Of a stretch of DNA of 64,000 bases, positions 6,661 through 51,429 are shown piece by piece. Source of the DNA: Scleroderma bovista. Lineage: Eukaryota; Basidiomycota; Agaricomycetes; Boletales; Sclerodermataceae. Location of the stretch: NCBI GenBank assembly GCA_037178675.1, contig JAYMGJ010000096.1:46884-110883 (forward strand). The letters are read 5' to 3'. The notes beneath the pieces are model-generated. The model did no database searches, was not told the DNA's origin, and saw only the letters and a program-made list of their open reading frames with translations. The position numbers were made by a program, and so were the translations under genes. The stretch's first letter is position 1. Every line of letters starts with the position of its first letter.

Positions 6661-6665
6661 GGGAG

Positions 6666-6904: not shown

Positions 6905-6958
6905 GGTGAGTTGGAGTAGCAGTTCCTCTATGTACATAGGTATTGCTTCAACACCAAC

Positions 6959-18360: not shown

Positions 18361-18433
18361 GGCTTATAAGCTTACTGAAGCTCTTTACAGCCGCTCCAAT
18401 ACCCTCCCAACTGTCACTACTCTCCGCGTCCCA

Positions 18434-25183: not shown

Positions 25184-25679
25184 TCATGTCAACATCCTTT
25201 CATTTCATTCTATGACTAGTAACTACCATCAAGCTTGGTATACGTTATATTTGATAATTGTCCAATCCTCTTTGGTCCATCTCGATGAGCACCCAACCAT
25301 TGTTGATAACATTACACTCGCCCTCTCAATAAAAGCTGCCAGTGTCCAACTATTGGGACTCGATGTAACCTTGGCCCAGCACTGGGGTCCTTCAATCCAC
25401 GACTGCTGGTCAGCACACGGTGGCGGCTAGAACACGTCGATCGGAGCGTGTCCACTGAACCAAGATTCAGTGTATGCTGAATGTACGTTTACCGGCGCTC
25501 TCGAAGGCACGGGAGTAGGGCATAGTGCAAACTTTATCAACATCATTCTTCCTTCACGTATTATCCTCGCAGCTCCAGCGGCTGTTGCTGTGTCAGACAA
25601 TCCTTTTAGAAAACATAATTATATTCTTAGTAGAGTGCTGCGTGCGGATGCGGAATGTATGTTTACCGGCGCTCTTGGA

Positions 25680-27134: not shown

Positions 27135-28409
27135 TGTCACGCACCAAACGTGTTTGGTACTGTGGACATGGAGAAAGTTAGCCGATGAAACTAATGCAAA
27201 GAACGCACACCCAAGATCTGTTGAAAGATTGTCCCGACTTGAGGGATACAGACAGCCCTCGCTATCCATATCACGCAAAGTCAAGACTATCCTTATGCGA
27301 AGAATGAATACAAGCTCGTTGTAGCCATCTATCGCACAAGAATGACTATCCTGGAGCAAGAGATGAATGCCATCGTCTGGCAGTCATCCCTCGCACAAGA
27401 ACCGCCAAGAAGCAGAAGAATCCAAGGATTGATGATCATTTCAGTATGAGAGAGGAATGCAACCTACTGCAGTCCAACTCCCATACCAGAACAACCAAAG
27501 AAGCAGAAGAAATGATAGAGAAACAAAGGAGAAAAGGAAGAATCATTTTTAGCGCCCAAATGTCAAATTTAGGCGCCCAGTGCCGGCATTCCGATATTTT
27601 GAATAGCTCCGCCATTTTTGAAGCTATCAATCATGTGACTATACCATCATGGAGCCTAGACCGTGGTCTATCTGCCTGTCAAGTTCCGACGTAAATCTGT
27701 TCATTTCCCACGGAGATATTCCACCTGCAATCCAGACACCCGCTTCATCACTCACTATGGAGTCCACATTTTCTCTGGAACGTTTCTCCGCTATTGCAGC
27801 AGACCTCAACTATGTCCTGCTCTTGGGACAGCCTCTCCCTGAGCTCCTGTGTACTGTCTGGTACATATCTTCCCAGTCTGCTTCCCCCTCAATAAAGCGA
27901 CCACATTCACTCTCCCTCACTGTCTATAAGCTCCCTCTCTGTCTTTGGACTTGTAGGTCACCCAGTGCTGGCCTAAAGCTCCTATATTGCTGTTTATCAG
28001 ATATATCTTGTATCTGATCATTTCTCTAGGCTGAAGCGCAGTCTAGCATCACTGTCCACTCCATCCCATCACTGTCCATCGCATTCTTGAAGCAGGAACT
28101 GTCCCCTTGCTTCCCTGTTGCTCCATCACTGCTATTACCCCCCTGTTGCCAATCTATCATCACTGCTCAATCCCAGGACTCTTCCTAACCACTGTGGTAG
28201 GCTGAAGAGGAGTCAATACCATCCCAAGTCGCATTCCATCCCCATCAGAAGCCCTTCCCTTCCCTCCTGCATCCTGCCTGAAGGCGTGCAGCACATCCCT
28301 CTGAGGAGATTAAATACCAGAAACGCAAAGGAAGACCACCACTCGCATATTGCTGTCATTTGGTGTTGGTTGTTGGTTGTTCTGACCTCTTCCCTCACTT
28401 AGGCGCACA
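27135..28409 (+). repeat. Long LTR family, copy 2 (internal deletion)
   Basis: Starts TGTCACGCACC and ends CTTAGGCGCACA, as copy 3 does. GCGG lies on both sides (27131-27134 and 28410-28413), a possible 4-bp target duplication. Compared with copy 3, about 1.07 kb is missing at ~27877 (CTTCCCAG joined to TCTGCTTCCCCC), removing the TATA box but keeping the AATAAA. The two flanks do not resemble each other beyond GCGG. Confidence 0.85.
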
Positions 28410-30650: not shown

Positions 30651-31427
30651 GGCATGTGAGTACATGTGAGCAGGTGCCAATGGTGTGCATACCTGGCCAG
30701 CTTCCCCTGTTGTGCAGTATATGTGGTGTGTGTGAGATGGGTGGGCTGGTTGGACAGGCCCAAGTACCAAAGCTGTTGCCACAGTGCTGGTGCTGGTGGC
30801 TGTCACACCATGCGAGTGCATGCATGTTTGTTGGGCTCAGGTCATCATTGTCACACAGTGTGTTCATCTGTGCTGACAGCGCTGTATGCAGAGGTGGTGT
30901 GTAATAATGGTTAGTAGACAAAACAATAAAAGAAAAGGAACCATAAAGGCTTACCATCATCTTTTCCATGCAGGTGGTAGTAGCTGTCATTGTTGTTGTC
31001 GTGGGGGGCAGTCAATGCAGTGGAAGTAGTGTGATGGGAATGGGGACTTAGAAGAAATCTGGATGTGTTGTGATTACTAATCAGCTGCATGTTCAGGTCT
31101 GCTCAGCAACACTCAATGCCCGTCGCCCACACACATGGTCCTCACAAATATATAAGTATCGCTCATTGTTTCTTGTTTGTTTTGCTCACTAACTACCATT
31201 ACAGTCTGTACACCTAGCCAGAACAACACAAGTATTGTAAGTTTTATTTTTTGTTTTGTTTATGACCTCCTACCCTCTTTCTACTTGTTTTCAAGAAATC
31301 CATACCATGAACGTGGACATGTGCAACAAAGAAGATGTTGATGAAAATGTAGGTGTGCTACCCGAGAGAGACAGATCACAATAGGGATAGGGATTGTGAC
31401 GATGAACAAAATAATGAATGCATGTGT

Positions 31428-31841
31428 ATTACCATGCCTATCATAATGTGCTAACTTGCCATTACCTGTAAACTTTGTGTGAAGCTCAAAGCCTTATATG
31501 GCCACATATGCCATTATCCAATAGGATGTATATTGCCATGCCTATATAATGGGCTAACTTGCCATTACCTGTAAACTTTGTGTGAAGCTCAAAGCCCTAT
31601 ATGGCAACATATGTCATTGTCCAATAGGATGTGTATTGCCATGCCTATCATGATGTCCTAACTTGCCATCACCTGTAAATTTTGTGTGACACTCAAAGCC
31701 TTATACAGCCATATATGTCATTATTGAATAGCATGTATATTGCCATGCCTATCATAATGGGCTAACTTGCCATCACCTATAATCTGTGTCAAGCTCAAAG
31801 CCTTATACAACCATATATAACATTATCCAACTTATGATCAA
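31428..31841. repeat. 104-bp tandem repeat, four copies
   Basis: Four head-to-tail units begin with ATT(A/G)CCATGCCTAT at 31428, 31532, 31635 and 31739, a period of 103-104 bp. Each contains GCTAACTTGCCAT(T/C)ACCT and AAGCTCAAAGCC. A fifth, partial unit begins at 31953 after ~110 bp of unrelated sequence. Not coding. Confidence 0.9.
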
Positions 31842-32554
31842 TACAGGGTTCAGCCAATCTGATAAATCATGTCCTTGTTTAAGGACATGAGAAGTGTGAT
31901 CAAGTGTTATCTGACATAGACTGAATGGGCTTACAGAACTGATAGTTTGTGTATTACCATGCCTATCATAATGTGTTAGGTTACCATTACCTATAAAACT
32001 TGTGTGAAGCTTAAAGCCTTATAAAGACTTATAAGGCCATGCATGACTATCCTTGTCAGATAGTCACATGTTAGACACAGTACTTATTGCAAAGTGCATA
32101 TACAGCATTATCGGAAAAATTCAGTCCCGGTGATGAATGGGAGATAGATTGATCAGTACTCAGTATTGCAAGGTGGGCAGTGCAGCTGTGCAGGTGGGTG
32201 GGTTGCATTCAATGCTGTTGCAATGGCAGATGGGATGTTGCAATGGTGGATGGGGACAGGTGGACAGAGGTGCAACAGTACGTTGCAATAATTAACTGGT
32301 GAATGGGCTACCGTGAACAACGCAACACTTAAATACAGTAGTTACCGTATGTGTTGCAACAAACCTACAGGAACAGGTGGTAGTACCATACACATTTGTA
32401 TACCTCATGCAATCTGAATTAGGTGAGAGCTTCTCTGTGTGCACCACATTTCTACAATGTATCACTAAGAGAAACAGGAAGATCATTACACTGATAAAAA
32501 CTCAAACCACAGGTATCATAGCAAGGTCAAGTAATCAATATCTGTCTCAAATAC

Positions 32555-35500
32555 CTAATTATCTTCAGGAACAGGTGTGTAACATCTATGCCAAGCAGGG
32601 CCATGAGCCATCTTGCTCAAATCAAGCTCAGGACTACCACTTGGGATTACCAGTTGTGTCCAGGGAGTATAATGAAACAATTTATGGTATGATGGAGGCA
32701 CCCACAGCAACAGTTTCCCATTGGGACCCACAATCCAGCCATCATTCTGCAAATGAATCAGGTCTCGGCAGTCCCCATTGACATTAGACATGTTAATGAA
32801 AAGACTCTGAGCATCATGGAGTGCATGTGCAGCTGAAGATGAGAAGTGGATTGGTGGGAGTGTACTTGAAAGGGAATTTGTAGTTTGCTCTATAAGGGTG
32901 TTTCCCACATTGCCACCTGTCTGTGCATCCAAAAGTTGGATTGTCTTATCCCAAGAACCTGACACAATGTGCCTTCCATCTGGTGAGAATGCAACTGACA
33001 AGACTGTGTCTGTGTGCCCTTGGAGTGGGTTGCCCACCTGGCCACCTGTCTGTGCATCCCAAAGTCGGATTGTGTTATCCCAAGAACCTGACACAATGTG
33101 CTTTCCATCTGGTGAGAATGCAACTGACAAGACTGAGTTTGTGTGCCCTTGGAGGGTGTTGCCCACCTGGCCACCTGTCTGTGCATCCCAAAGTCGGATT
33201 GTCTTATCCCCTGAACCTGACACAATGTGCCTTCCATCTGGTGAGAATGCAACTGACAAGACTGTGTCTGTGTGCCCTTGGAGGGGGTTGCCCACCTGGC
33301 CACCTGTCTGTGCATCCCAAAGTCGGATTGTGTTATCCCAAGAACCTGACACAATGTGCTTTCCATCTGGTGAGAATGCAACTGACAAGACTGAGTTTGT
33401 GTGCCCTTGGAGGGTGTTGCCCACCTGGCCACCTGTCTGTGCATCCCAAAGTCGGATTGTCTTATCCCCTGAACCTGACACAATGTGCCTTCCATCTGGT
33501 GAGAATGCAACTGACAAGACTGTGTGTGTGTGCCCTTGGAAGGGGTTGCCCACCTGGACACCTGTCTGTGCATCCCAAAGTCGGATTGTTTCATCCCAAG
33601 AACCTGACACAATGTGCCTTCCATCTGGTGAGAATGCAACTGACAAGACTGTGTCTGTGTGCCCTTGGAGGGGGTTGCCCACCCGGCCACCTGTCTGTGC
33701 ATCCCAAAGTTGGATTGTCTTATTCCAAGAACCTGATACAATGTGCCTTCCATCTGGTGAGAATGCAACTGAGTTGACTGAGGAGGTGTGCCCTTGAAGT
33801 GGGTTGCCCCCCCAGCCACCTGTTTGTGCATCCCAAAGTTGGATTGTCTCATCCCAAGAACCTGACACAATGTGCCTTCCATCTGGTGAGAATGCAACTG
33901 ACTGGACTGACTCTGTGTGCCCTTGGAGTGGGTTGGCCACCTGGCCACCTGTCTGTGCATCCCAAAGTCGGATTGTCATATCAAAAGAACCTGACACAAT
34001 GTGCCTTCCATCTGGTGAGAATGCAACTGAGTTGACTGAGGAGGTGTGCCCTTGGAGGGGGTTGCCCACCTGGCCACCTGTCTGTGCATCCCAAAGTCGG
34101 ATTGTCTTATCATAAGAACCTGATACAAAGTGCCTTCCATCTGGTGAGAATGCAACTGACAAGACTGAGGAGGTGTGCCCTTGGAGGGGGTTGCCCACCT
34201 GGCCACCTGTCTGTGCATCCCAAAGTCGGATTGTCATATCAAAAGAACCTGACACAATGTGCCTTCCATCTGGTGAGAATGCAACTGAAAAGACCAAGTT
34301 TGTGTGCCCTTGGAGTGGGTTGCCCACCTGGCCACCTGTCTGTGCATCCCAAAGTCGGATTGTCTCATTGGCTGAACCTGACACAATGTGCCTCCCATCT
34401 GGTGAGAATGCAACTGAGTTGACAATTGTGTGCCCTTGAAGTGGGTTGCCCACCTGGCCACCTGTCTGTGCATCCCAAAGTCGGATTGTCCCATCAGCTG
34501 AACCTGACACAATGTGCCTCCCATCTGGTGAGAATGCAACTGAGTTGACAAAGTTTGTGTGCCCTTGGAGGGGGTTGCCCACCTGGACACCTGTCTGTGC
34601 ATCCCAAAGTCGGATTGTCATATCAAAAGAACCTGACACAATGTGCCTTCCATCTGGTGAGAATGCAACTGAAAAGACCAAGTTTGTGTGCCCTTGGAGG
34701 GGGTTGCCCACCTGGACACCTGTCTGTGCATCCCAAAGTCGGATTGTCTTATCCCCTGAACCTGACACAATGTGCCTTCCATCAGGTGAGAATGCCACTG
34801 TGTTGACTGAGAAGGTGTGCCCTTGAAAAACCTGTTGATTTCTGGGCCAGTCATCCTGTTGTCCTACAGCAACTTGTGCAATTCCTGCAAACCTTTCAAT
34901 CAGGGACTTTGCCAATACTGAATTTGATGGTGAAAATGGCAATGCTGTCAAGTACAGGTGAGGAGTACTCTTGTCAATGATCCCAGAAAAACTTTGCACA
35001 AATTTGATCCCATCCTTGATGAACATCAAGAGGTCTTTATATTCCATTCCCCTCTGCTATTTCAGTGTTATGAAGAGGACATCACATGTTGCACATGAAT
35101 AAACTCACCTGAAACCATTCCTCAGCAGAAATCAGTGCCCCACAGGCCTCCCTAATCAACTTTGATACACCAAGGGCCTCCAACCAGAATAATATCTGTT
35201 CTCCAGTCACCAGCCCCCTCACTAATTCTGCCAGGTCTTGCTCAAATGCCACAGCTTGGAGGTGGGTTGCCCAGAATTGACATGAATACAACAAATGTGG
35301 TGGAATGTTTTCTTCGACCCTCTTTTCCAAGTCTGTCACCTCCGAGTTGGAGATGTATGATGTTTCCAGTTTGCAGATATTGAAATGAAGGCCAGCTTGC
35401 ATGACAGAAAGCGAGGCAACAGCAAGATTACGATGTGCCTCACCTTGCTGAATAAAGAACTCCCCACTTCGTTTCTCATCGAGCAAAAAGTCATAGAATG

Positions 35501-37762
35501 AAGCATGCAGGGGGCGGACAGGAGTAGATAGCTCATTGGCACCGGCAAGTAGTGATGCCATGAAGTTGAGGATCAACCCTACAGGATAGCGGTCATCCTC
35601 CTGAGGGAACCTGTCACGCATAAAGTCCAATGCACTGATAGGGAGCGGCTCCTTCAACCACAGGATCTGCCGCATGACAGAACGAAAGTCCCGGCGGTCA
35701 TCGGACCCTCGGAAAAGATCCTTCAAAAATGTGGTATACATTTCGTCGAGAAGAGTCCTTCCGTCGCCAGGAGCATGAGACATGATTTGACGGAAACGGT
35801 CCCTCGGGATCACTCCGCTTCGGGGGGACATGAAGTCGCATGCCAGACGTGCCCATTCGAACACCCCACCAGATTTCGCAGCGAGCTGTTGGAAATTTTC
35901 GTCGGAGAACGGGTCACGAAGACTTTTCAGACGGGTAGAAACATAGAAGTGAATGTCGCGTATAGTCAACTCCGCACCAATGGCATCGAGCGACCTGGCA
36001 TAGACGTGCGGACAGGTGTTTAATGCCTTCCCAATGTCCACGAGTGGCCGAGAAGTCAGGAGAATCCGCAAGTTGGCCGGAAGTTCCGCACCGTATGCAG
36101 CAAGGACCTCAAGTACAGTCGCCCTCGTGCGCTCCGCACCACTCTCATCCAAAGCATCAATAACCACAACAACATTTCCGGTGGGAGAACCCTTCAATTG
36201 GGAAAGGGGTTCGAGAATGAGTTTGTTCCACTGTGCTGCGATATCTGTCGTGTCCCTCAATGAATGGTTTTTGGCCGTCACCTCAACCAGAAGCGGTCGC
36301 AAACGGAGGTCGCGATGAGCCAAGTCACGTGCAATGGTGAGGAAGAGCTTCGTATGGAGCTGCTCGTGGTGTCTAACGCGACTGAAACAGAAGCACGATC
36401 CGAGCATGCCGAGATTCTGGGCCTGCCGAGCAACTGTGTGCGCTATGGCTGATTTCCCCTTTCCAGCCTGCCCGTAAAGGCAGAAGATGCGCGGTGCAGC
36501 AGCATCTGTGTTGTTGATCCAATCAACGATTTCATTCAAGATCTCGACTCTCGTGCCATCTAGGCACTTCTTTGCCTCATTGAGTCCGACTCTGTCTGCA
36601 CAGGTCAAGCAGTTCGAGCTAAAATCTTCGTAGATCTGTTGAATGCCATATTGGATGTCTGGAATTGGTTGATCTCGAAGCTCGAGCACCAGCTTCTCTA
36701 ACTTCCGGTTATAGTTGGCGACCTTGGTCGTTGTCTCCGAGGGAACATTCTTCCCGAGCCACGACCCTGTGGAAAAGATGAATCTCATGAAGACTACAGG
36801 AATAGATGGCGTACAAAAATCATTGGTTTCCGAGTACTTTGTGATGAACATTGCGCATTCCTGTATAACTTGGGCGATCTCCACTAGGACGTCCTTCGTC
36901 GCATTGATCTTCGATGAAGACGTGTTTTCCAGGATGAGCTCGTAAGTTCGTTCGATTCCAGTAACAAGACCTCTGATAGATGCGTCGAAACTCGCTTGCG
37001 ACAGCATCAACTATCCAGATTGCCATTAATCAAGGATATCGGGGGTGATCGATGCATACCTTGGAGGCCCTGTTCAATGCACTCAAAGCCATTTGAGCGT
37101 GTGGATGGATCTATGGGTGATTATCAGTCAAGCTTGACCGTCTGCCATTGGGATGACAAACTCCAATAATGCCATTGATGACTGTAGAGAAAGAGCTAAG
37201 GGTTTGGCGATATCCAGTGTCTACGGGACCGTGCGCATCAACAGCAATCTCCGCTTGGCCAGGAATGGGGTCCATATGTGCGTCCTGTGTGTGGCCGAGT
37301 ACTGTCAGAACAGGTTGGATATCGCCTGGCACCTGGTGGGATCGATAAGCGCCAGCAATGCATGGCTGCATGTGCACGGACCTCGTGGGTAGCAGTAGCA
37401 CGTCCTTCCCCCGTGGTTTCTCCAGGACTGGTGAAGGTGGAAGGTTTCAGTACGACAGCACTGACGTTTTCAACGTCAGCCGCTATGGACTGGATGTGGT
37501 TCACCGCATGGAAACTCTTCAGAACCAGCTCGCGGATACGTAGATAACATCGTACCTCCTCGAACACAGAAGATGGCCCTTCGTGCCCCACTGAGGTGGT
37601 AGGGTTAGTGACAAATGGCTCGTGAGTATGTAGGAGTCCCTCACCCTCCTGCTGTCGTCTACGCTGAAACGGCACCAGAGCACCAAAACGCGACCAGAAT
37701 GTGCTGTGGGATTTGTGTTGACCAGACTGGCTGTCTGCAGTCTTGCGGGTTTTCTTTGTCAT
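32555..37762 (-). CDS. NACHT-WD40 NLR protein (NLR 1, open)
   Basis: Six predicted exons: 37762-37382, 37332-37162, 37110-37060, 37010-36815, 36766-35109 and 35053-32555; introns are 48-55 nt. The product is ~1651 aa with no stop. Order: a ~190-residue N-terminal region with no recognised effector domain; a helical segment (NATKDVLVEIAQVIQEC, NYNRKLEKLVLEL); a NACHT NTPase with P-loop GQAGKGKSA (~365-372) and Walker B VVVVIDALDES (~466-475); a winged-helix/helical part; then 15 WD40 units of 43 aa and a C-terminal module (GWIVGPNGKLLLWVP ... HGPAWHRC). The 48-nt fourth intron would also read in frame; removing it restores the family-like NDFWSWLGKN. NACHT-WD40 proteins are cytosolic STAND switches: the propeller senses and the NTPase oligomerises. 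Relatives include Podospora HET-E/HET-D. The exon-1 donor is weak. Confidence 0.85.
32890..34850 (-). repeat. Coding WD40 array of 129-bp units (NLR 1)
   Basis: Fifteen consecutive units, each GHTxxVxSVAFSPDGRHIVSGS then xDxTIRLWDAQTGGQVGNPLQ. One unit (GHTIVNSV, ~34410) is a codon short. Between units the DNA is nearly identical except at codons just after GHT, the residue before SVAF, and the SGSxDxTI triplet (WDE, FDM, GDK, ADG, YDK, WDN). Two complete units repeat as a pair near 33000-33500. Fifteen units suit two seven-bladed propellers plus one. Confidence 0.95.
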
Positions 37763-37905
37763 CGCTGGTGAAGTTATATGTTGATGCGGATGGTTTGGTC
37801 TTACAAGTAGGAGAGGGCAAAGGGAGAGAGTGAACCGCAGTTAACTCCACGGTGAGGCCTTGAGGCATCCACGGTCTGGTCGGAAGAGTCCGGTCCGCCA
37901 CCGTC
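37763..37905 (-). promoter_or_regulatory. Conserved upstream block of NLR 1
   Basis: The ~140 bp before the start codon is conserved with 43352-43488 upstream of NLR 2 (GTTAACTGCGGTT, CTCTCCCTTTGCCCTCTC, AAGACCAAACCATCC, ATAACTTCACCAGCG just before ATG). The pyrimidine-rich tract fits a fungal core promoter. No TATA box is obvious. Function is inferred from position and conservation between the two arms only. Confidence 0.4.
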
Positions 37906-38061
37906 CCGACAGAATTCCAACTGTCCAGTGTCCTTCGCCCCCTCTTTTGTTCGTCATGCTCACCTGCACTCTCCTAGCATCGGCTTCCTAGCCCATTTCC
38001 CTCCGGCTCGCCTGCAAACTGGACCAGCACGACTGGTTGAGATCGGGACGATGGGACGCGT

Positions 38062-38510
38062 TCAGTGAGCCATCAGACCTGCTTGACTAACGAGAGACGC
38101 ACTTAAACATCCCTGGCTCTCCATCAACGTAGGTAACAGATGAGGCTCAGCATGTCCATCGCCCCATTCCCACCCCAGCACGATTTCTTCGTCAGCGCGT
38201 AGATCGCGCAGTGCGAAGACTCTGTGAATGACAATGTTATTTCGTCTGTATTCGAATCCATGTCCGCCCCCGCCCCCGCACCCGAAGTGGGGAAAATGAA
38301 AGTGATAATGGGAATCCGACACGTCCGTTAAAGAAGGTGGAGGTTCGTCGATATCCTCCGTCGCAGTTGTTGACTCTCCCAATGTCGCTTACCTTTCCCG
38401 ATCGCCACCCTCGCCCTTTTTCTTCTGCCTTCGTGCACCCCGACACATCACCAGCCTCACAACCGCATTCGGCCAGCACCCACACCGTGCCCATCTTGCC
38501 TTCCAGCCTC
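38062..38510 (-). pseudogene. SET-domain protein remnant (C-terminal part)
   Basis: Minus-strand sequence carries two SET-domain hallmarks in different frames. RCGCWPNAVVRLVMC (~38455-38500) resembles the (R/N)xGCxPNAVxRPVxC block. NNIVIHRVFALRDLRADEEI then VLGWEWGDG (~38155-38260) resembles the C-terminal substrate/AdoMet block. They are separated by a frame break and Gly/Lys/Glu-rich sequence. Upstream (38510-39180) no further convincing SET sequence is found, although frames are open. Probably a decayed lysine methyltransferase gene. Confidence 0.5.
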
Positions 38511-39223
38511 CGCATCCTGCTCGACCCCATTCACACCATTCACCTGTGCAGCCTCCTCTCCTCCCTCTGCCTTTTTTTGCCCTTGCCTTAGGCTCGAAAC
38601 CTCCCCATTGGTGCCCGTCATGCCTGTCGCAGAGCTGGTGCTGGTGTTGCGCATCCTCATTGCTCCGAGCCTCTTCCTCTGTATCATGGCTACGCGCTCT
38701 CGCTCCTCGTCTGGGAAGATTCCTTCGCCACATACCCAACACCTCCATTCCTCAGGGTTCCTCCACGATTCCAAAGCACGCCACATGACACCATCTCGAG
38801 CAGTGACCATGCAACCTACCCAGTAGCGTACCAATAACGACCAGGGCACTCTTTGCAACGCCTCGCTGCAATGAACACTCAACCACCTCCGCCCTGCTTC
38901 CATTCTGTAGGTGTGCACGCACAGAATCTATGGTCGGTTAGAAATGGGGATGTATGACGCTAAACTTTGCTGCTCGACAGCTACACAGGCCTTGGCAGAT
39001 ACCCGGCATGGATTCATCACGACCTCAGGGCTACATATCCACTTATCTGTGACGCACCCGACCTCGACCTTTCCTTCTATGCGTGAGCGCAAACCTCGAT
39101 AGGAAAAGCAAGTTTTGTATTCCAGATGTAGTAGCGTATCCAGGACTAGTTCTCTAGGTATTCCCCGTGAGTACATACACCCATGATGTCATCCCGCACA
39201 GAACAAGAAAAACCAATCACTGA

Positions 39224-40165
39224 ATGGGGTCTGAATCCAGGAATCATCCGTCGACGACTCTCCGCACTCTCGAATCCGAATCCGAAGTCGCACAGTTCCT
39301 CAGCCAGTTCCACGGGGCCCATGAACCTACCTCTACGGGTCCACAGACTACTTTTCTCGACCACAGCGCGTCTCTCATCCATCGCAGTGATCACTTTGTT
39401 ATCCTCGCCGTTCCTGACGCACGCGCTGCAGATGCCCTGACCGCGTATCTCCCCCGTTTCTGCAAAGCAGCTTCGATCCCTGCATCGCCAGTGTTGTTCC
39501 TCCCCGTCCCAGAAACTGCTGTGAAACACGTTCGCGACCTCCTTGCATCCCTTCGCTTCGACCCGCTCGCTGTAGGCATCATAGGTGAAGCAGCTGCGCA
39601 GGAATATTCGCTTCCTTACTAACGAGGACGGAGAGTCAGGCATCGTGTCGAGGCATTCGTTTCACGAAGGTTCGAGGGTGGCTGCCAAGTGGATCAAGCA
39701 GCAGTTCGAGCAAACCAGTGTAACATGCAGGTTAATGGCATTCGCGGAGGGCTTTGCACCACATGTGATCTGGTGAGCCTTTTCAGTCTTGACGGCGCAC
39801 TTGTTTGATACATATACAGTCGATACAATGCCACGACAGATACGTTGAATATTGTCCTCGTATCGGGGCACTATGGCCTACGTGGCTCATTTGGCTCAGA
39901 CGGGCGATTCAAACATCTACAGATACTTTAGGCTGCGCTGACACATTGAATGCATATACGTAGGCGCCTGGTGCAGGCGACATTAGCGACAGGCCAGGGT
40001 ACGATTTATTCCAGGTCCGCTCCATCTGCAAAGTGCAGGTACGTCCTGTTCTCTTTGTCACCTGGCTTGTTATGATGCCGATGGTCGATGCAGTTCGCTA
40101 CACTCCTCCATGCTGCTGGCTTTGATCTCCCCACCGGGACTAGTCTCGATGATTTGGATTGATCC
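39224..40165 (+). pseudogene. M28-family metallopeptidase remnant
   Basis: Order matches fungal M28 aminopeptidases: an N-terminal region ending VRDLLASLRFDPL (to ~39570), then LRRNIRFLTNEDGESGIVSR, HSFHEGSRVAAKWIKQQFE, FAEGFAPHVI, an intron with GTGAGC..ATACAG (~39773-39819), CRYNATTDTLNIVLVSGHYG and LRGSFGSDG, where the His of the S-x-H-Y-D/G block would be a zinc ligand. The junction near 39570-39590 needs a frame change not explained by a normal intron. The usual Asp after HY is Gly here, the DDDGSGT block is not found, and later frames (to ~40165) do not follow the family. A broken, 3'-degenerate gene. Confidence 0.6.
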
Positions 40166-40344
40166 TAGCTGTGACGATGGTGATCAAGCTATTCTGATAT
40201 CCCCGAGAGTTGGGAGGGGTAATCTTATGTTTTATATAACACCGAGGTATTGTCGAGAAATTACATCTCCTTGCATAGATAGAAAGACAGACCAACAGTG
40301 CTACAGAGATGCTTCGTGTTGAGCCTGGTCATAATGCCCCCATA

Positions 40345-42681
40345 CTATACGACCTCCACCACACTTGTCTCCCCTATCGCCTTTCTATCCACTGAGGTTG
40401 CATCCGACTCAGCTTCCTTGTGTTCCCTATCTATGTTCGGCACCGGTCCAGTGAACCAGTAGACGCCCCCATACACGGGGAAGTAGTACCATGCAAGTGA
40501 GAGCAGGAGCACGCCGCCCAGGACGACTATGGTGTAGTTCATAGAAGTAGCATTTACCCCAGGTGATGTGGGGAACATGAAAATGATGGTCATGAACGCC
40601 ATGAACGCTACTGCAACAAAGCCAATCTGCGGATATGATGTCAGCGCCAACGCCAAGAGCGAGTGAGAAGGGGGAAGGAACCTACAAAGACACCTAGGTC
40701 AAATGGCCCGGGCTTGAAGTCGTTATCAAACACGAAACATGCCATGATAGGTATCGCGTATGCAACGTAGAGAGCCGCGATCGATACCGCAAACACGGCG
40801 TTCGTCGCCTGGGCACCCGGAAACGTGAGTGCGCCGAAAAGAGCCGCCATCACGACGGAGAACCAGACGGTGTTGACTGGCGTTCTGGTGTAGTTGTTCA
40901 CGCGGTAAAGGATGCCCGAGAAGGGGAGTGCGCCGTCCCGCGAGAAGGCAAAGCATTGACGCGAGGTTGCGAGGACCTGCAAGAGAAGGGTCGGCCACGT
41001 TAGTATGGCGTTGCTCTGGTTGGTACAGACTAGCAGACATCATCATGCTAGATCCCATCATGTATTTAGTGGAAAGGTGATAAGAAGGGACATACAAGGA
41101 ATGGAAGAATAAACGTACTGTGCTGCGACGACGAACGACCAGAGTGCCAGGGTGCCTCGGTACTCGATATCCGTGCCCATGCAGAACACAAGAGCGATAT
41201 TAATGGCTGAGATGCAAGGCAAGTGAGAAGGATGCACGATGTCAGGAAACTTGGACGGATGGGGCACACCTATTCCGAGGAAGCCAGAAATAGCGATGGA
41301 GCCGACCTGTGGATGGTCAGAGTCTGGTGGGAACCAGGGGACGCGGGACGCACGATTGCCCATGGGATAGCGATGGCAGCGTTCGAGGCTTCCAGCAGAG
41401 TCGAACAAACCTGCAGATAATCAGCATCAGATAACCACGCCGAAACATGTCCGCATATACGTACAGATTGTCCAAAGGGGGGTCATGAAGGACATGATAA
41501 ACGCAAAGCCATTTGGCCAGCCATCAACTATGCATGAGATGAGACAGTTCATTTGCACGACATTCACGGATGTGAGAGAAAACGTACAGTTTCCGAGGGC
41601 ATAGCTGGCGGTGTTCTTATATTCTTTTGGCGTTGCGACTGGGAGGGCAACTATCACCGCTAAGCAAAGACTGACCATATGCAAGGTCGACATCAAGACA
41701 GCTTTCGAGATTCTAAGAGATATGCACAAGACGTTGATGGTAACAGAGTGTTTGCAGCCTGGCAGGTGTGGCTGTTGCAAGGCGGCACACAATACCATGA
41801 GTGAGAAGGACTGCAAGGTATATGCCACTGACGATAGCGTGAAGTTGATGAGGAGAGTAGAAGAAATACCGGCGTACTAGGTTTGTGCTTGGGTTGCGAT
41901 AAATGTTTGGCCGCATCCGATGCTTGTGGCAGCATTGATTTGGACGGCACAGCCCCAGTCGACAAAGGCTTCATCAAGTGCATGTCAGTAGGCACAGATC
42001 TTGGAAGATAAAGCAAAATCCAGCTCACTGATCGACGTAATATTCCCGATCGTGTTTGCGTCTACGCACCGAATATTGTCACGCGGGTAGATCTAACAGT
42101 GACAAAATACGTACACCCGACGATCCAGCAGAGCAAGTTTCGTCAGTGAGGAGAGGAGAGAGCGTGCGTCCAGTAGTAGAGCTACAGACGTCGGACGTCA
42201 AAAGCAATTTAGATTCCCTTACAACAGAACACTTACACACCACCAGACGTCGGTGCAGAGGAGCCAAGCTCCACCATGGCCAAGCCGACACAGAGAATGA
42301 AAAGCGAGGCTACAAGCCACTGGGATGGCTTCACTTCAGCATCTCCACTCTCCAAAAGGTACCACGATGCAATACATACCCCCCACACCATAGCAGACGC
42401 GCCACCATTCGGCAGGGCAGACAAGAACAGAACTGTACACGTTTGCTTACTGTAATTCGATGGTAAAATGGATGAGACATACGCAATGGATGGGAGGAGG
42501 CCAATAATGCTGAAGGAGACCCCGAACACCTACGAGCGTCCCACGAGTGGGTGTCGACTGGCTTGAGAGACGGAGAAGGCGCACCTCTAAATGGATTGAA
42601 TGCGTGTTTGGACTCCTGCGTATATCCAAGCTGAGCAATGAGTGCTTCATCTCCCCACGCAATCGCCTCTCTGGAGGTCAT
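40345..42681 (-). pseudogene. APC-family amino acid permease, probably inactive
   Basis: Fungal amino acid/GABA-type permease with many introns. N-terminus MTSREAIAWGDEALIAQLGY (42681), then VFGVSFSIIGLLPSIA, ALPNGGASAMVWG, LGSSAPTSGG, RNLLCWIVG, NTIGNITSIS, ALWSFVVAAQ, SRQCFAFSRDGALPFSG, NYTRTPVNTVWFSVV and the last membrane segment ending WYYFPVYGGVYWFTGPV. About 12 membrane helices are expected. Damage: TGA at 42145-42143 where the family has Trp (SP-K/H-W-RNLL), and frame changes near 41740 (after LARLQTL) and ~41390 (before EASNAAIAIPWAI). If those are real, the protein is not made; some may be misread introns. Confidence 0.65.
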
Positions 42682-43351
42682 CCTGGGCGAGGCCAGTAGG
42701 AGACTGCAACGCGAGCTCGGAAGAAGCCTGGTGGGTATATAAAGGCAGACGGGCTATGGGAGAACGGTGATACATCGATGGTTCGAATAGCAAGAAAGCT
42801 GAACTGCGATCAGATCAGAATATGTCTAACCAGTACTTGCATCGCGATCGCCGTAAACACGAGTGTTCCATATTCAAGTAAGCTGGTCGCCAGTCCTCGT
42901 GAGTCTCAGGTTGATCAAAAGATTCGTAACAATGTATAGTAACTGATAGGGAAATGTGTGTATTGCACGGATGGGTGGGAAAACGAAGTGGCATCTCCGT
43001 CAGGCTTTGGAGACCACTGAGGAACTAGTGAGCGGGAGTAGCAGTAAATGCTGAGTGACCAGGGTACTGAACGCATCCATGATGGAGGAGGGGCACAACG
43101 ATAGCAGGATGTGACCCACTTTGTGAGTCGTACAGGATAGTATGATATGAAGGCAGCAAGCGCAGGGATGTGGGGGACAAGGCCGTGCTGGTCCAATTGG
43201 AGAGGGAAACAGGCTAGGAGAACGCAGGTGAGCGTGAGGAACAAAGGCGGAGGGGCGCATGAAATATTCCAGTGAGTGGGGCGAAGGACGATGTGCTTGG
43301 GACGAGAGGCTCCGGCGCCTGGCAGGTCCACAACCAGCGCTACCACATGCA
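42682..43351. other. Intergenic, nothing recognised
   Basis: Upstream of the permease remnant and of NLR 2. Only short frames are present. No repeat, RNA gene or clear promoter element was found. Confidence 0.4.
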
Positions 43352-43488
43352 ATGCGGGTGGACCGGATTCGGACCAGAGCGTGGATGCCTCAAGGCGGTG
43401 GAGTTAACTGCGGTTCGCTCTCCCTTTGCCCTCTCGACCTGCTAATTGTAAGACCAAACCATCCTCTCAACGTATAACTTCACCAGCG

Positions 43489-46400
43489 ATGCCAAAGAAG
43501 AACCGCAAGACTGCAGACAGCCAATCCAGCCAACGCAGGGTATGCAAATCCCACACCACACGAGGGGGGACTCTGATGTCGTTGCAGCATTCTCCTTACC
43601 TGACTCCCTCTGCCTCTGGGGGGCCGAGGGTCTTGACTAGGTCCCAGCGCAGACAACAGCAGGAGGCTGAGGGACCACCACGCCCTTCCGATTCATTTGT
43701 CGCTAACTCTGCCACTTCAGTAGGGCAAGAAGGGTCATCTGCTGTGTTTGAAGAGGTATGATGTTGTCTACGCATCCGCGAACTGGATCTGAAGAGTTTC
43801 CATGCGGTGAACCACATCCAGTCCATGGCGATTGACCTTGAAGACGCTAGGGCCGTTGTAATCACTTCCACCGGTCCTGGAGAAACCACGGTGGAAGGAC
43901 GTGCTGCTGCTACCCACGAGGTCCGTGCACATGCAGCCATGCATTGCTAACGCTTATCGATCCCACTAGGTGCCAGGCAATATCCAACCTGTTCCGACAG
44001 TACTCGGCCACACACAGGACGCACATATGGACCCCATTCCTGGCCCAGTGGAGATTGCTGTGAATGCACACGGTCTCGTAGACACCGGATATCGCCAAAC
44101 CCTTAGCACTTTCAGTACAGTCATCAATGGCATTACTAGAGTTTGTCATCTCAATGGCAGACGGTGAAGCTTGACTGATAATCACGCATAGATCCATCCA
44201 CACGCTCAAATGGCCTTGAGTGCATTGAACAGGGCCTCCAAGGTATGCATCGATCACGCCCGGTGCCATCGATTAACAGGATTATGGATAGCTGATGCTG
44301 TCGCACGCGAGTGTCGACGCATCTATGGGGGGGCTCGTCACTACCATCGAACGAACGTATGAGCTCGTCCTGGAAAACAGGTCTTCATCCAAGATCAATG
44401 CCACGAAGGACGTCCTAGTGGAGATCGCCCAAGTCGTACAAGAATGCGCACAGTTCATCACGAAGTACTCGGAAACCAAAACTTTCTGTACGCCACCTAT
44501 TCCTGTAGTCTTCATGAAACTCATGTTTTTCACAGGGTCGTGGCTCAGGAAGAGTGTTCCCTCTGAGACAACGACTAAGGTCGTCAACTATACCCGGAAG
44601 TTGGAGAAGCTGATGCAAGAGCTTCGAGATCGACCAATTCCAGACATCCAATATGGCATCAAACAGATATTCGAGGATCTTAGCTCGAACTGCTTGACCT
44701 GTGCGGACGGAGTTGGACTCAACGAGGCAAAGAAATGCCTCGATGGCACGAGAATCGAGATCTTGAATGAAATTGTTGACTGGATCAACAACACAGACGC
44801 CGCTACACCGCACATCTTCTGGCTCTACGGACAGGCTGGAAAGGGGAAATCGGCCATAGCGCACACAGTTGCTCGGCACGCCCAGAATCTCGGCGTGCTT
44901 GGATCGTGCTTCTGTTTCAGTCGTGTTAGACAGCACGAACAGCTCCATACGAAGCTCTTCCCTACCATTGCGCGTGACTTGGCTCACCACGACATCCGTT
45001 TGCGACCTCTTCTGGTTGAGGTGACGACCAACAACTATTCATTGAGGGACACGGCAGACATCGCAGCACAGTGGAACAAACTCATTCTTGAACCCCTTTC
45101 CCAGTTGAAGGGTTCCCCGACTGGAAATGTCGTGGTGGTCATTGATGCTTTGGATGAGAGTGGTGCGGACCACACGAGGGCGACTGTACTTGAGGTCCTT
45201 GCTACATATGGCGCGGAACTTCCAACAAACATCCGAATTCTCCTGACTTCTCGGCCACTCATGGACATTGAGGAGGCATTAAACACCGGTCCGCATATAT
45301 ATGCCAGGTCGCTCGATGCTATTGATACAGAGTCGACCATGCGCGACATTCACCTTTATGTTTCTACCCGCCTGAAGACTCTCCGTGGCACGTTCCCCAA
45401 CGAAAATTTCCAACAGATCGCTGCGAAATCAGGTGGGGTGTTCGAATGGGCACGTCTGGCATGCGACTTCATCTCCTCCCGAAGCGGAGTGATCCCGAAG
45501 GACTGTTTTCATCAAATCATGTCTCACGCTCCTGGCGACGGAAGGACTCTTCTCGACGAAATGTATACCACATTTTTGAAGGATCTTTTCCGAGGGTCCG
45601 ATGACCGCCGGGACTTCCGTTCTGTCATGCGGCAGATCCTGTGGTTGAAGGAGCCGCTCCCTATCAGTGCATTGGACTTTATGCGTGACAGGTTCCCTCA
45701 GGAGGATGACCACTATCCTGTAGGGTTCATCCTCAGCTCCATGGCATCACTGCTTGCTGGTGCCAATGAGCTATCTACTCCTGTCCGCCCCCTTCATGCT
45801 TCTTTCTATGATTTTTTGCTCGACGAGAAACGCAGCGGAGAGTTCTTTATTCAGCAGGGTGATGCACATCGTAATCTTGCTGTTGCCTCGCTTTCTGTCA
45901 TGCAAGCTGGCCTTCATTTCAACATCTGCAAACTGGAAACATCATACATCTCCAACTCGGAAGTGGCAGACTTGGAAAAAAGGGTCGAAGACAACATTCC
46001 ACCACATCTGTTGTATTCGTGTCGATTCTGGGCAACCCACCTCCAAGGTGCAGCATTTGATCCAGACCTGGCACAATTAGTGAGGGGGCTTGTCACTGGA
46101 GAACAGATGCTATTTTGGTTGGAGGCTCTTGGTGTATCAAAGTTGATTAGGGAAGCCTGTGGGGCACTGATCTCTGCTGAGGGATGGTTGCAGGTAAGTT
46201 TATTCATGTGTAACATAGGATGTCATCCCACTAACATTGAATTAGCACAGAAGAATGGGGTATGAAGAATTGTTGATGTTCATCAAGGATGGGATCAAAT
46301 TTGTTCAGAACTTTGCTGGGATCATTGACAAGAGCACACCTCACCTGTACTTGGCAGCATTGCCATTTTCACCATCAAAGTCAATATTGGCAAGATCTCA

Positions 46401-48322
46401 GATTGAAAGGTTTGCAGGAATTGCACAAGTTGCTGTAGGACAACAGGATGACTGGCCCCAGAATCAACAGATTCTTCAAGGGCATACAGGCTTTGTCTGG
46501 TCAGTTGCATTCTCACCAGATGGAAGGTACATTGTGTCAGGTTCTTTGGATAAGACAATCCAGCTTTGGGATGCACAGACAGGTGGCCAGGTGGGCAACC
46601 CCCTCCAAGGGCACACCTCCTCAGTCCAGTCAGTTGCATTCTCACCAGATGGAAGGCACATTGTGTCAGGTTCAGAGGATGAGACAATCCGACTTTGGGA
46701 TGCACAGACAGGTGACCAGGTGGGCAACCCCCTCCAAGGGCACACCTCCTCAGTCTACTCAGTTGCATTCTCACCAGATGGAAGGCACATTGTGTCAGGT
46801 TCTTTGGATGAGACAATCCGACTTTGGGATGCACAGACAGGTGGCCAGGTGGCAACCCCCTCCAAGGGCACACCTCCTCAGTCCAGTCAGTTGCATTCTC
46901 ACCAGATGGAAGGCACATTGTGTCAGGTTCAAGGGATAACACAATCCGAGGATGCACAGACACCAGGTGGGCAACCCCCTCAAGGGCACACCTCCTCAGT
47001 CTACTCAGTTGCATTCTCACCAGATGGAAGGCACATTGTGTCAGGTTCAACAGACAGGTGGCCAGGTGGGCAACCCCCTCCAAGGGCACACCTCCTCAGT
47101 CCAGTCAGTTGCATTCTCACCAGATGGAAGGCACATTGTGTCAGGTTCTTTGGATAACACAATCCGACTTTGGGATGCACAGACAGGTGGCCAGGTGGGC
47201 AACCCCCTCCAAGGGCACACCTCCTCAGTCTACTCAGTTGCATTCTCACCAGATGGAAGGCACATTGTGTCAGGTTCTTTGGATGAGACAATCCGACTTT
47301 GGGATGCACAGACAGGTGGCCAGGTGGGCAACCCCCTCCAAGGGCACACCTCCTCAGTCCAGTCAGTTGCATTCTCACCAGATGGAAGGCACATTGTGTC
47401 AGGTTCAAGGGATAACACAATCCGACTTTGGGATGCACAGACAGGTGGCCAGGTGGGCAACCCCCTCCAAGGGCACACAGACTCAGTCTACTCAGTTGCA
47501 TTCTCACCAGATGGAAGGCACATTGTGTCAGGTTCTTTGGATGAGACAATCCGACTTTGGGATGCACAGACAGGTGGCCAGGTGGGCAACCCCCTCCAAG
47601 GGCACACCTCCTCAGTCCAGTCAGTTGCATTCTCACCAGATGGAAGGCACATTGTGTCAGGTTCAAGGGATAACACAATCCGACTTTGGGATGCACAGAC
47701 AGGTGGCCAGGTGGGCAACCCCCTCCAAGGGCACACAGACTCAGTCTACTCAGTTGCATTCTCACCAGATGGAAGGCACATTGTGTCAGGTTCTTTGGAT
47801 GAGACAATCCGACTTTGGGATGCACAGACAGGTGGCCAGGTGGGCAACCCCCTCCAAGGGCACACCTCCTCAGTCCAGTCAGTTGCATTCTCACCAGATG
47901 GAAGGCACATTGTGTCAGGTTCTTTGGATGAGACAATCCGACTTTGGGATGCACAGACACGTGGCAATGTGGGAAACACCCTTAAAGAGAAAACCACAAA
48001 TTCCCTCTCAAGTACACTCTCACCAATCCACTTCTCATCTTCAGCTGCACATGCACTCCATGATGCTCAGAGTCTTTTCATTAACATGTCCAATGTCAAT
48101 TGGGACTGCCGAGACCTGATTCATTTGCAGAATGATGGCTGGATTGTGGGTCCCAATGGGAAACAGTTGCGATGGGTGCCTCACTCATACCATAAATTGT
48201 TTTTCTATACTCCCTGGACACATCTGGTAATCCCAAGAGGTATTCCTGAGCTTGATTTGAGCAGGATGGCTCATGGCCCTGCTTGGCATAGATGTTACAC
48301 ACCTGTTCCTGAGGATAATTAG
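43489..48322 (+). pseudogene. NACHT-WD40 NLR protein (NLR 2, disrupted)
   Basis: Same architecture as NLR 1: exons 43489-43920, 43970-44140, 44192-44242, 44292-44487, 44536-46193 and 46246-48322, with introns at the same places. It has P-loop GQAGKGKSA, Walker B VVVVIDALDES, ~12 WD40 units and the same C-terminal module (GWIVGPNGKQLRWVP). Breaks: codon 91 is TGA (43759-43761) where NLR 1 has CGA, a CpG-type C-to-T change; one base is lost at ~46850 (GTGGCAACC for GTGGGCAACC); and short deletions lie at ~46955-46970 and ~47048. The first two WD indels nearly cancel, the third does not. Translation from the in-frame ATG at 44295 could bypass the exon-1 stop, but the frame then ends at ~47157 inside the propeller. 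Confidence 0.8.
46475..47975 (+). repeat. Coding WD40 array of 129-bp units (NLR 2)
   Basis: About twelve units; starts of the GGGCACAC word at 47213, 47342 and 47471 give an exact 129-bp period. Units alternate SSVQS/SSVYS/DSVYS and LDE/RDN. A 258-bp pair (47342-47599) is repeated essentially unchanged at 47600-47857, suggesting recent unequal exchange or conversion. Confidence 0.95.
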
Positions 48323-48539
48323 GTGTTTGAGACAGATATTGATTACTTTGACCTTCCTATTATTTCACCTGTGGTTTGAGTTTTTTTCAGTGTAATGATC
48401 TTCCTGCATCTCTTAGTGATACATTGTAGAAATGTGGTGTGCACAGTGAAGCTCTCACCTAATTCAGATTGCATGAAGGTATACAAATATGTATGGTCCT
48501 ACATAAACTAAATCATAGGATCATCAGCAACCTAACAAA

Positions 48540-50145
48540 TTTTCTGAAGGTCTGAAAAACTCTAATCATCTGAAAAAAGCTGGCATCAGTAGAGTGAATC
48601 TGATATTCTGAAAAGAACCAAAATTCTGGTGTTCTGGCTCTCTGATGATCTGAAAGTCTGAAAACATCTGATATCAAAACTTTTCAGAAATTCTCAGACA
48701 GTTCAGACCATCAGAGGCCCAGAAGATCAGATTATCAGTGATTCTCAGAGCATCAGACAACCAGGCAGTAAGAAGAGCTAACTTCCAGACATTCTCAGTG
48801 ATTTTCAGTGATTCTCAAACTGTTTCAGTGATTCTCAGATCATCAGGTAATCAGATATTCAGAATAGCAGAAATCAAGATTTCCAGATCTTTTGTACTTC
48901 AGACACTAAGGGTATTGTCAGACTATTTCATCTCATCAGATGGTCAGTCCATCAGGCCTCCAGATATTCTCTGATTATCTCAGAACAAAATTTCATCAGA
49001 CAGTCAGAATAACAGACCTCCAAGGTCATTCAGATTATCAGAGAGTGAGTACATCAGACCCTTTGATATTTTCAGAATGTTTCAGATATTCTCTAATCAT
49101 TAGATGATCAGATAGTCAGGAGAGCAGTTATTCAGTTCTTTTCAGACCACCAGATAGCAAGTACCTGAGGTTTTCAGATTGATTCAGAATATTTCAGATC
49201 ACAAGGCAGTCAGAAACTTAGGATAGTAGTCCACCAGTGGTTTCCAGTCCACCAGAACATTAGAACAAAAGTCTCCTAGTTGTTTTCAAATGATTAGGTA
49301 GTCAGAGACTCAGTATCACAGTCCCCCAGTTGTGCTCAGATCATCAGAACATTAGAAAAAATGTATCCTAGTTGTTCTCAGATTATCATGTAGTCAGAGA
49401 CTCAGTATCCCAGTCCCCCAGTTGTTCTCAGACCATCAGAATATTAGAACACCAGTCCCCAGTTATTCTCAGATCATCATGTACTCAGAGGCTTTGTATA
49501 GTAGTTCTCCAGCTGTTCTCAGATCATCAGATAGTCAGAGATTCTGTGTAATAGTCCCCCAATGTTTCTCAGACCATCAGAACATTAGAACACCAGTCTC
49601 CCAGTTGTTCTCATATGATCAGGTAGTCAGATCATCAGCAAAACAGCACTTTTCCCACCCCAAGTTTTGACATGTTACATGAGTGATTCAGTTTCTACAC
49701 TCTAACCCAGTATGTAAAAGGCTTATTTTGGATACAAAGAAGGTTCAGTGAAACTTTTAGGTAAGGTCTATAGGCCAGTTTTTTTGTTCATTTTCTGTAC
49801 AGCTCTGTATTACTGGGTACCTTTCTGTAATTTTCTGTAATTAGCTGTACAGACTCTACAGAGCAAAGGGTTGTTTTGCTGATGATACTCAGTATCACAG
49901 TCCACCAATTGTTTTCAGATCATCAGGCAGTCAGAGGCTCAGTATTATAGCCCCCTGATACTTCCCAGACCATCAGGACATTAGAACATCAGTCCCACAG
50001 TTGTTCTCATATGATTAGGTAGTAAGAGACTCAGTATAGTAGTCCCCCAATTGTTCTCAGACTATCAGAACACTAGAATACCAGTCCCACAGTTGTTTTC
50101 ACATGATCATGTAGTCAGATATTCAAGTATAGCAGTTCTCCAGTG
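48540..50145. repeat. Degenerate CAGATCATCAG minisatellite
   Basis: 48540-49250 is built of loose CAGA(T/C)xATCAGA words. 49250-49660 and 49880-50145 are more regular: ~45-bp monomers in A/B pairs, CCAGTTGTTCTCAGACCATC + AGAACATTAGAACACCAGTC alternating with CAGATCATCAGGTAGTCAGA + GACTCAGTAT. The gap 49660-49880 is unrelated. Nothing coding. Confidence 0.75.
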
Positions 50146-50484
50146 GATTTAGTATTAGTTGATAGACCACACTAGCACATATATTGTTTGCAGAATACAA
50201 TTGTCCCTCAATTTGAATATCAGCTTGAATACTTCCTTTGAACTCCTCTCAGTCCTCCTCTGTTGCCTCTGCCTTCTGGCAACTCCAACCTTTCATCAGA
50301 CCTGCATATCTCTGTCCTTCTGTCCTCTGAAATACAAGGATGTAGGTACTATCACAAGGGCACAGTACATATGCTGAAACCAAAGTCCTCACAATCTCTG
50401 CAACCTCTCTGCCTGTTGTCAACACCCAAGTTTGTACAAAAGGCCAAGAAGAATATGAACAAAAGAAAACACAACAGGCATTCT

Positions 50485-51429
<945 letters not shown>

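What the first reader, a model, noticed from the sequence alone, without database searches (positions are those of the whole stretch)
32385..48505. Divergent pair of NACHT-WD40 NLR genes in a large inverted duplication
The two NLR genes are mirror copies with the same six-exon structure, conserved promoters and 3' flanks, pointing away from each other around a ~5.4 kb core. One copy is open end to end; the other is broken. An inverted pair can exchange sequence by gene conversion or hairpin-mediated rearrangement, and one copy could serve as a donor of WD40 units for the other.
Basis: seen in the sequence. Interest (0 to 1): 0.85.

Follow-up and report, generated by a model that had tools for sequence, protein, structure and literature searches.

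The report
Repeated head-to-head fungal NLR block
In a mushroom-forming fungus, two mirror-image immune-receptor-like genes are not a private inverted duplication but one of several scattered copies of a larger block whose receptor genes have traded pieces with each other.

Summary
The inverted arms are real: 32380-37899 (-) and 43357-48502 (+), about 87-90% identical around a 5.46-kb core, each a NACHT-WD40 NLR of a fungus akin to Scleroderma. The whole NLR-core-NLR block recurs head-to-head on three other contigs and in parts elsewhere, so the divergent pair predates the block's spread. Mirror arms share long tracts in two sibling blocks (C501b, C425), not here. WD40 hypervariable residues fall largely where Podospora has them. 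Of 23 WD units compared, the mirror arm is tied-best for one and sole best for none, so a donor role is unsupported. The right gene's break is clustered small deletions and may be an assembly error. NLR 3' flanks are swapped between positions, so the NLRs mark recombination junctions; a clean core flip is not shown.

The parts
32380..37899 (-). Left arm: NLR gene (X-side), with 5' region and about 175 bp of 3' flank
   Evidence: nearest relative C364 (97.3% over NACHT exon)
37045..37800 (-). Left NLR 5' exons (basic N-terminus and first part of the helical N-terminal region)
   Evidence: tblastn of Scleroderma citrinum P0019/P0016; frames printed; no Pfam family at its cut-off
35082..37010 (-). 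Left NLR NACHT exon, open (P0002)
   Evidence: Pfam NPHP3_N 3.5e-23, NACHT 4.8e-05 (23.7 bits, under its cut-off)
32555..35056 (-). Left NLR WD40 exon, 15 WD40 units of 129 bp (one of 126), open (P0001)
37900..39228 (.). Core piece X, beside the left NLR; recurs beside NLRs on C501 (twice), C316, C88, C359, C425, C295; no Pfam match in the ORFs tried
39224..39971 (+). Fragment like the N-terminal part of an M28-type aminopeptidase (reading by eye); its own ORFs have no Pfam match, but the adjoining piece that the window lacks has Pfam M28 in C501b
   Evidence: translations; PF04389 2.1e-11 on L048:5328-5570
39228..39229 (.). Junction where the four other cores compared (C316, C425, C501b and the partial C501a) have 1.31-1.42 kb more; it holds a short-chain-dehydrogenase piece in C501b
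39971..39973 (.). Junction where the same four cores have 721-723 bp more; it holds the M28 piece in C501b
40345..42753 (-). Amino-acid permease gene in several exons (AA_permease_2); limits approximate
   Evidence: PF13520 5.5e-14 on 40641-41039, 0.0037 (below cut-off) on 42233-42529
43357..48502 (+). Right arm: NLR gene (P-side, beside the permease)
   Evidence: nearest relatives C425m (NACHT), C501a (3' end 99.3%)
44292..46265 (+). Right NLR NACHT exon, open
46246..48322 (+). Right NLR WD40 exon, 12 units; frame lost by clustered small deletions in three units (about 46.84-47.11 kb)
48310..50110 (.). Right 3' flank: 48400-50110 is 99% to C425:19676-21377, 48310-50540 is 99.4% to C626:25441-27671; on C425 it follows the X-side NLR, so the core is reversed there relative to this flank

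Best explanation
The locus is one degraded copy of a dispersed segmental-duplication block: NLR(-) - X - M28 piece - permease - NLR(+). The two NLRs belong to two paralogous lineages (X-side and P-side) that were already head-to-head before the block was copied. Since then the copies have recombined with each other (gene conversion and/or ectopic crossover): mirror arms inside a block in some cases, other loci in others. This makes mosaic NLR genes and swaps 3' flanks. The WD40 arrays change largely by their own expansion and contraction, with diversifying selection on a few binding-surface residues, as in Podospora HNWD genes. Shown: block recurrence, non-sisterhood of the arms, mosaicism, the hypervariable sites, purifying selection on NACHT. 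Inferred: that the proteins are non-self receptors triggering regulated cell death, that recombination across inverted arms is the cause of the flank swaps, and that the right copy was lately functional.
For: Block: the permease side of the core matches at 92-93% on C501, C425, C316, with X and NLR pieces in the same order and the NLRs in opposite orientation. Four of four same-contig NLR pairs under 15 kb apart in the list (pieces of one gene merged; list a lower bound, 69 of 217 candidates scored) are divergent, but they are copies of one block, so not independent. Ages: NACHT dS between arms 0.237 (window) and 0.244 (C316) exceeds dS between block copies of one side (0.181, 0.199). Lineages: {W_L, C364, C316p, C359m, C88} 100/99; W_L+W_R rejected, dlnL 232. 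Mosaicism: the nearest copy changes along the gene; three of seven X-position genes carry P-type NACHT. Mirror exchange: C501b mirror pair rank 1 and C425 tied third of 55; arm dS 0.118 (C425) and 0.100 (C501b). Array: units 10/12 and 11/13 on the left, 6/8/10 and 7/9 on the right are (near-)identical two-unit copies. Codons mapped from Podospora 7, 9, 25, 27 have pN 0.484 on the left against 0.032 for the codons outside the seven mapped positions; 1 of 20000 random 4-codon sets reaches it. NACHT dN/dS 0.19-0.34 in the ten pairs computed.
Against: The assembly is fragmented (850 contigs), seems to hold both haplotypes in places, and several contigs end inside block copies (C249, C295, C364), so copy number and some joins could be wrong. 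The mirror exchange is partial: over the whole NACHT exon the C425 arms are rejected as a clade (p 0.0035) and the C316 arms strongly (p 7e-49); only the C501b arms are not rejected (p 0.17). Site-shuffling p values assume even rates along the gene and 30 of 55 pairs look significant, so only ranks are used. No expression data. The N-terminal region has no Pfam family at its cut-off and the structure model is poor (pLDDT 55), so cell-death output is not shown. The window's own mirror pair shows no recent exchange.
Confidence: 0.75

Rival explanations
1. In-situ inverted duplication: the two NLRs are mirror copies of one gene at this locus, diverging since and exchanging sequence.
For: Arms are inverted, collinear and about 87-90% identical.
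Against: Each arm has a closer relative elsewhere in each of the four segments compared (5' region, NACHT, pre-WD, tail); sisterhood rejected; the whole block recurs elsewhere.
Confidence: 0.07
2. Core inversion polymorphism: the inverted NLR arms recombine and flip the core between orientations, C425 (with C359) being the other orientation at the same place.
For: C425 carries the same right flank at 99% but after the X-side NLR; C425 and C359 hold what look like the two ends of one inserted element at 50104-50110, so they may be one allele of this flank.
Against: Inside the block C425 is mostly 92-95% identical while the flank is 99%; a third 99% copy exists (C626); C425's left flank does not match the window and the window's left flank is largely repeat-derived, so the second breakpoint cannot be tested. 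Ectopic crossover between blocks fits as well.
Confidence: 0.2
3. Plant-style sensor/helper NLR pair, kept head-to-head for co-regulation.
For: Divergent orientation is kept in four blocks.
Against: 5.5 kb (window) to more than 7 kb with other genes lie between; both members have the same architecture and 90.5% NACHT identity; as assembled, three of four blocks have one broken NLR. [quoted passage not shown]
Confidence: 0.06
4. Assembly artefact: collapsed or chimeric contigs of a repeat-rich dikaryon produce the mirror arrangement.
For: Some contig ends lie in block copies; clustered small deletions in the right array; published warning that such arrays assemble badly (PMC12222747, passages).
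Against: The same joins are seen on four contigs with roughly 6-16% divergence from the window block.
Confidence: 0.1

Closest known systems
Podospora anserina HNWD genes (het-d, het-e, het-r) and other fungal NLRs with high internal repeat conservation (PMC1805685, PMC2873952, PMC12222747, PMC4986451; passages read)
   Same: NACHT plus an array of near-identical WD40 units; hypervariable residues at mostly equivalent positions; variable unit number; exchange among paralogues; recent array changes within the gene
   Different: Different N-terminus (no HET match seen; no Pfam family at cut-off); basidiomycete; here the genes also sit as inverted pairs in a multi-copy block that carries other genes; published position 10 is not variable here and unit position 28 is
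Head-to-head NLR pairs of Sordariales (PMC12258605, passages read) and of plants (as told there)
   Same: Divergent neighbouring NLR genes
   Different: Here the two are close paralogues with other genes between, and the pair has been copied as a unit; no sign of sensor/helper specialisation
Basidiomycete MLKL-like NLR N-termini (BaMLKL, PMC9815663, passages read)
   Same: An all-helical N-terminal region is predicted for the relative P0016, compatible in order of helices
   Different: Not established: no profile match and low model confidence

Membership tests
Fungal NLR with highly conserved WD40 repeats (HNWD-like in the broad sense) | STAND NTPase (NACHT) module | tested here: met
   NPHP3_N 83 bits (cut-off 24.8), NACHT 23.7 bits (cut-off 26.7, below) on the left gene; P-loop GQAGKGKS visible
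Fungal NLR with highly conserved WD40 repeats (HNWD-like in the broad sense) | WD40 array with very similar units | tested here: met
   15 WD40 stretches; one-unit self-offset identity 91% at DNA level
Fungal NLR with highly conserved WD40 repeats (HNWD-like in the broad sense) | Hypervariable sites at the published positions | tested here: met
   All four codons of Paoletti et al. (7, 9, 25, 27) map to variable unit positions 40, 42, 15, 17; of the seven positions of the 2025 study, position 10 is nearly invariant here and 39 only moderately variable
Fungal NLR with highly conserved WD40 repeats (HNWD-like in the broad sense) | Effector or signalling N-terminal domain | tested here: inconclusive
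   No N-terminal Pfam family at its cut-off in P0016, P0019 or four window 5' ORFs (best 25 of 28 and of 31 families shown for the two proteins); all-helical, low-confidence model of P0016
Fungal NLR with highly conserved WD40 repeats (HNWD-like in the broad sense) | Controls allorecognition or other non-self response | not testable with these tools
   Needs genetics or fusion assays
HNWD genes proper (HET-NACHT-WD40) | N-terminal HET domain | tested here: not met
   No HET family among the hits shown for relatives P0016 and P0019 or for four window 5' ORFs; the window's full spliced N-terminus was not assembled
Sensor/helper head-to-head NLR pair | Two unlike NLRs, often with a shared promoter | tested here: not met
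   Same architecture, 90.5% NACHT identity, 5.5 kb with other genes between
In-situ inverted duplication | Arms are each other's closest relatives | tested here: not met

The most novel reading that the evidence does not exclude
The inverted NLR genes act as recombination ends of a self-propagating cassette: exchange between mirror arms and between blocks flips or re-pairs the core and the flanks, so that 5' halves (N-terminus, NACHT) and 3' halves (WD40 array, flank) are combinatorially re-joined across the genome, a repertoire-building route for which the searches made here (listings) showed no report in fungal NLRs.
Probability: 0.2. Interest if true: 0.65.

Novelty: new variant of a known kind. 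Interest (0 to 1): 0.4.

Why it matters
Fungal NLRs are thought to diversify by exchange among paralogues, but the genomic arrangement that brings paralogues together is, as far as I saw, described mainly for Sordariales. A repeated head-to-head NLR block with measurable mirror-arm exchange in some copies and none in others offers a natural test of whether inverted pairing speeds receptor diversification in a basidiomycete.

Tried and rejected
Simple flip of the core at this locus: one side fits (C425 right flank 99%), the other cannot be tested because the window's left flank is largely repeat-derived.

Subtelomeric position: no exact (TTAGGG)4 in the assembly; uninformative.

SET-domain reading of core piece X: my impression from a translation only; Pfam finds nothing, so dropped.

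Structure of the N-terminal region: whole-protein model of the S. citrinum relative P0016 has mean pLDDT 55; no fold search was made on it.

Site-shuffling significance of shared tracts: 30 of 55 pairs pass Bonferroni (a first version with 12 sequences, 53 of 66 was distorted by the long tail of C88 and is not used), so only ranks are used.

Rule 'X-side intact, permease-side broken': as assembled the X-side NLR is open in the NACHT and WD exons in 4 of 4 blocks and the permease-side NLR in 1 of 4 (C316). Too few and not independent; two of the breaks are small deletions that may be assembly errors. An earlier thought that both C425 arms are open was wrong: C425m has a 1-base deletion in its NACHT exon.

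Rows dropped: the 5' alignment left out C501bm; the 11-sequence tract test left out C88, C364, C61 and the outgroups; unit comparisons use only units followed by exactly 129 bp or the last unit (144 units in all; left unit 2 and right units 2-4 not compared, so 23 of 27 window units) and, for selection, internal 129-bp units without stops (131).
Full report
What is there. The window is the end of a 110.9-kb contig (C96) of a 51.8-Mb, 850-contig genome. The nearest matches with names are Scleroderma citrinum proteins at about 81%, so the source is a fungus of that kinship. The arms are confirmed: 32380-37899 (-) and 43357-48502 (+), 87-90% identical. Both carry a NACHT exon and a WD40 exon. The left gene is open in these exons, with 15 WD40 units. 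The right gene has 12 units and loses frame.

The right gene's break. Units 2-4 of the right array have 128, 118 and 100 bp. By eye: one base missing from a GGG run, losses of 1-5 bases, and one of 29. All six later internal units are exactly 129 bp and some are identical to each other. Such clustered small losses in one stretch can be real, but they are also what poor assembly of these arrays may give; a 2025 Podospora study reports unreliable short-read arrays and one probable false homopolymer deletion (PMC12222747, passages read). I therefore do not treat the right gene as a settled pseudogene. Its NACHT exon is open and shows purifying selection against its relatives (dN/dS 0.19-0.20 in the three comparisons with C425m, C316m and C275).

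The arms are not sister copies. Over the NACHT exon the left gene is 97.3% identical to C364 and 90.5% to the right gene; the right gene is 94.9% identical to C425m. Over the 5' segment the right gene is 96.3% identical to C425m and 87.1% to the left gene. Over the 3' tail the right gene is 99.3% identical to C501a and 94.3% to the left gene. A tree of 18 copies rejects left+right as a clade (dlnL 232, p 1e-44).

The block. A search with the core alone showed that it recurs in order beside NLRs. Fetching the surroundings and comparing gives NLR(-)/core/NLR(+) blocks on C316, C425 and C501 besides the window, and partial ones on C501 (second place), C249, C61, C359, C88 and C295. The core holds an amino-acid permease and, in C501b, an M28 peptidase piece and a short-chain dehydrogenase piece. 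The window's core lacks 1.31-1.42 kb and about 722 bp that the four other cores compared have (C316, C425, C501b, partial C501a), so it is a reduced copy. Permease/M28 pieces also occur on contigs such as C19, C496, C572 and C841 that have no match in the capped NLR lists, so the NLRs and these genes may have been joined at some stage.

History. NACHT dS between arms is 0.237 in the window and 0.244 in C316; between blocks for the same side it is 0.181 (left/C316p) and 0.199 (right/C316m). So the X-side/P-side split is slightly older than the spread of the block. In C425 and C501b the arms are closer (0.118, 0.100). There the arms share long tracts: the C501b mirror pair has the longest tract of 55 pairs (496 bp) and the C425 pair is tied for third (316 bp), while the C316 and window pairs rank 43rd and 47th. 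In 300-bp windows the mirror arm is the clear best match at 99.3% (next 94.0) in one window of C425 and 99.7% (next 96.7) in one of C501b. This exchange is partial: over the whole NACHT exon the C425 arms (p 0.0035) and the C316 arms are rejected as clades, the C501b arms are not (p 0.17). Exchange with other loci looks at least as common: three of seven X-position genes carry P-type NACHT, and C316m shares a 460-bp tract with C501bp, the second longest.

Flank swaps. The sequence after the NLR 3' end matches across positions: W_R (P) with C425p (X) at 99%, C425m (P) with C501bp (X) at 94% over 218 bp, C249m (P) with C316p (X) at 94% over about 180 bp, this last one lying about three hundred bases beyond the end of the NLR match on C316. 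Matches within one side also occur: the tails of C359m and C425p (both X) are 99.8% identical. So in the cross-side pairs a switch between the 5' and 3' neighbourhoods lies within or next to the NLR. For C425 the core is reversed relative to the shared right flank; by eye C425 and C359 carry the two ends, one the reverse complement of the other, of one insertion at 50104-50110. A third 99% copy (C626) and mostly 92-95% identity inside the block keep me from calling this a simple inversion allele.

WD40 units. In 131 internal units, amino-acid variation is greatest at unit positions 42, 15, 17 and 39, counted from VAFSP, then 40 and 28. Podospora codons 7, 9, 25, 27 (PMC1805685, passages) map to 40, 42, 15, 17. 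Of the seven positions of PMC12222747, position 10 maps to 38, which hardly varies here, and position 28 of this unit, which does vary, is not among them. At the four codons the left array has pN 0.484 and pS 0.393 against pN 0.032 and pS 0.072 for the codons outside the seven mapped positions; the right array pN 0.357 and pS 0. 1 and 4 of 20000 random 4-codon sets reach these pN values. For the left array pN is only slightly above pS, so the excess is weaker there than in the pooled set of 100 units (0.442 against 0.191). Recent array changes include two-unit duplications inside each array. The mirror arm is tied-best for 1 of 14 left and best for 0 of 9 right units compared; two right units are identical to units of C425m. 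The Podospora study of 143 mutants likewise concluded that new repeat rearrangements were intragenic (PMC2873952, passages).

How it most likely works. By kinship with HNWD genes the intact copies are cytoplasmic receptors whose WD40 propeller reads a variable partner and whose NACHT module oligomerises. Output is probably regulated cell death; this is inference. The N-terminal region of the relative P0016 is predicted helical in a poor model, in line with, but not showing, the MLKL-like N-termini reported for basidiomycete NLRs (PMC9815663, passages).

State of the other pairs. In the NACHT and WD40 exons read here both arms are open only in C316. In C425 the permease-side arm has a 1-base deletion in its NACHT exon. 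In C501b the permease-side arm's WD exon stops after three units at 30922, with a matching WD piece about 7 kb away. The X-side arm is open in all four blocks. The small 5' exons were not checked in these copies.

Literature. Searches listed no report of a repeated inverted NLR block in a fungus; I saw listings only for these, apart from the papers named. The library lacks most subscription papers. In Sordariales 13 of 225 two-NLR clusters were head-to-head and 16 of 272 clusters were paralogous copies (PMC12258605, passages).

Noticed in passing
window 2217-2837 (+): Fragment of a Plavaka transposase (Pfam PF18759, 1.6e-32).
   Followed up: no
window 3724-6616 (+): Retroelement pieces: integrase core and RVT_2 reverse transcriptase; 3757-6956 is 91% to C626:21707-24909.
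   Followed up: no
window 27132-27885: About 754-bp element at 94-99% identity in more than 30 other places (only 40 of 2123 candidates scored).
   Followed up: no
window 12124-27135: Stretches 99-100% identical to C51:65063-69401 and to parts of C615:32146-43193, perhaps the second haplotype of a dikaryon.
   Followed up: partly
window 50104-50110: Site of an insertion with inverted ends in another copy: C425 carries one end, C359 the reverse-complement end.
   Followed up: partly
window 48295-48310: C501a and C626 are both interrupted at this spot at the NLR 3' end by related repeat-like sequence.
   Followed up: partly
window 31412-32033, 49192-50144, 8236-8846: Internally repeated stretches; parts of 31413-32135 also recur at 92-98% at more than 20 places.
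   Followed up: no
G000 C501:22428-23745 and 30922-33473: One sibling NLR has a WD40 piece about 7 kb away from its NACHT part, as if split by an insertion.
   Followed up: no
G000 C88:3952-5871 and 11995-13418: Same kind of split, about 6 kb, in the C88 copy.
   Followed up: no
G000 blocks C96, C316, C425, C501: As assembled the X-side NLR is open in NACHT and WD exons in 4 of 4 blocks, the permease-side NLR in 1 of 4; few, not independent, and partly small deletions that may be assembly errors.
   Followed up: partly
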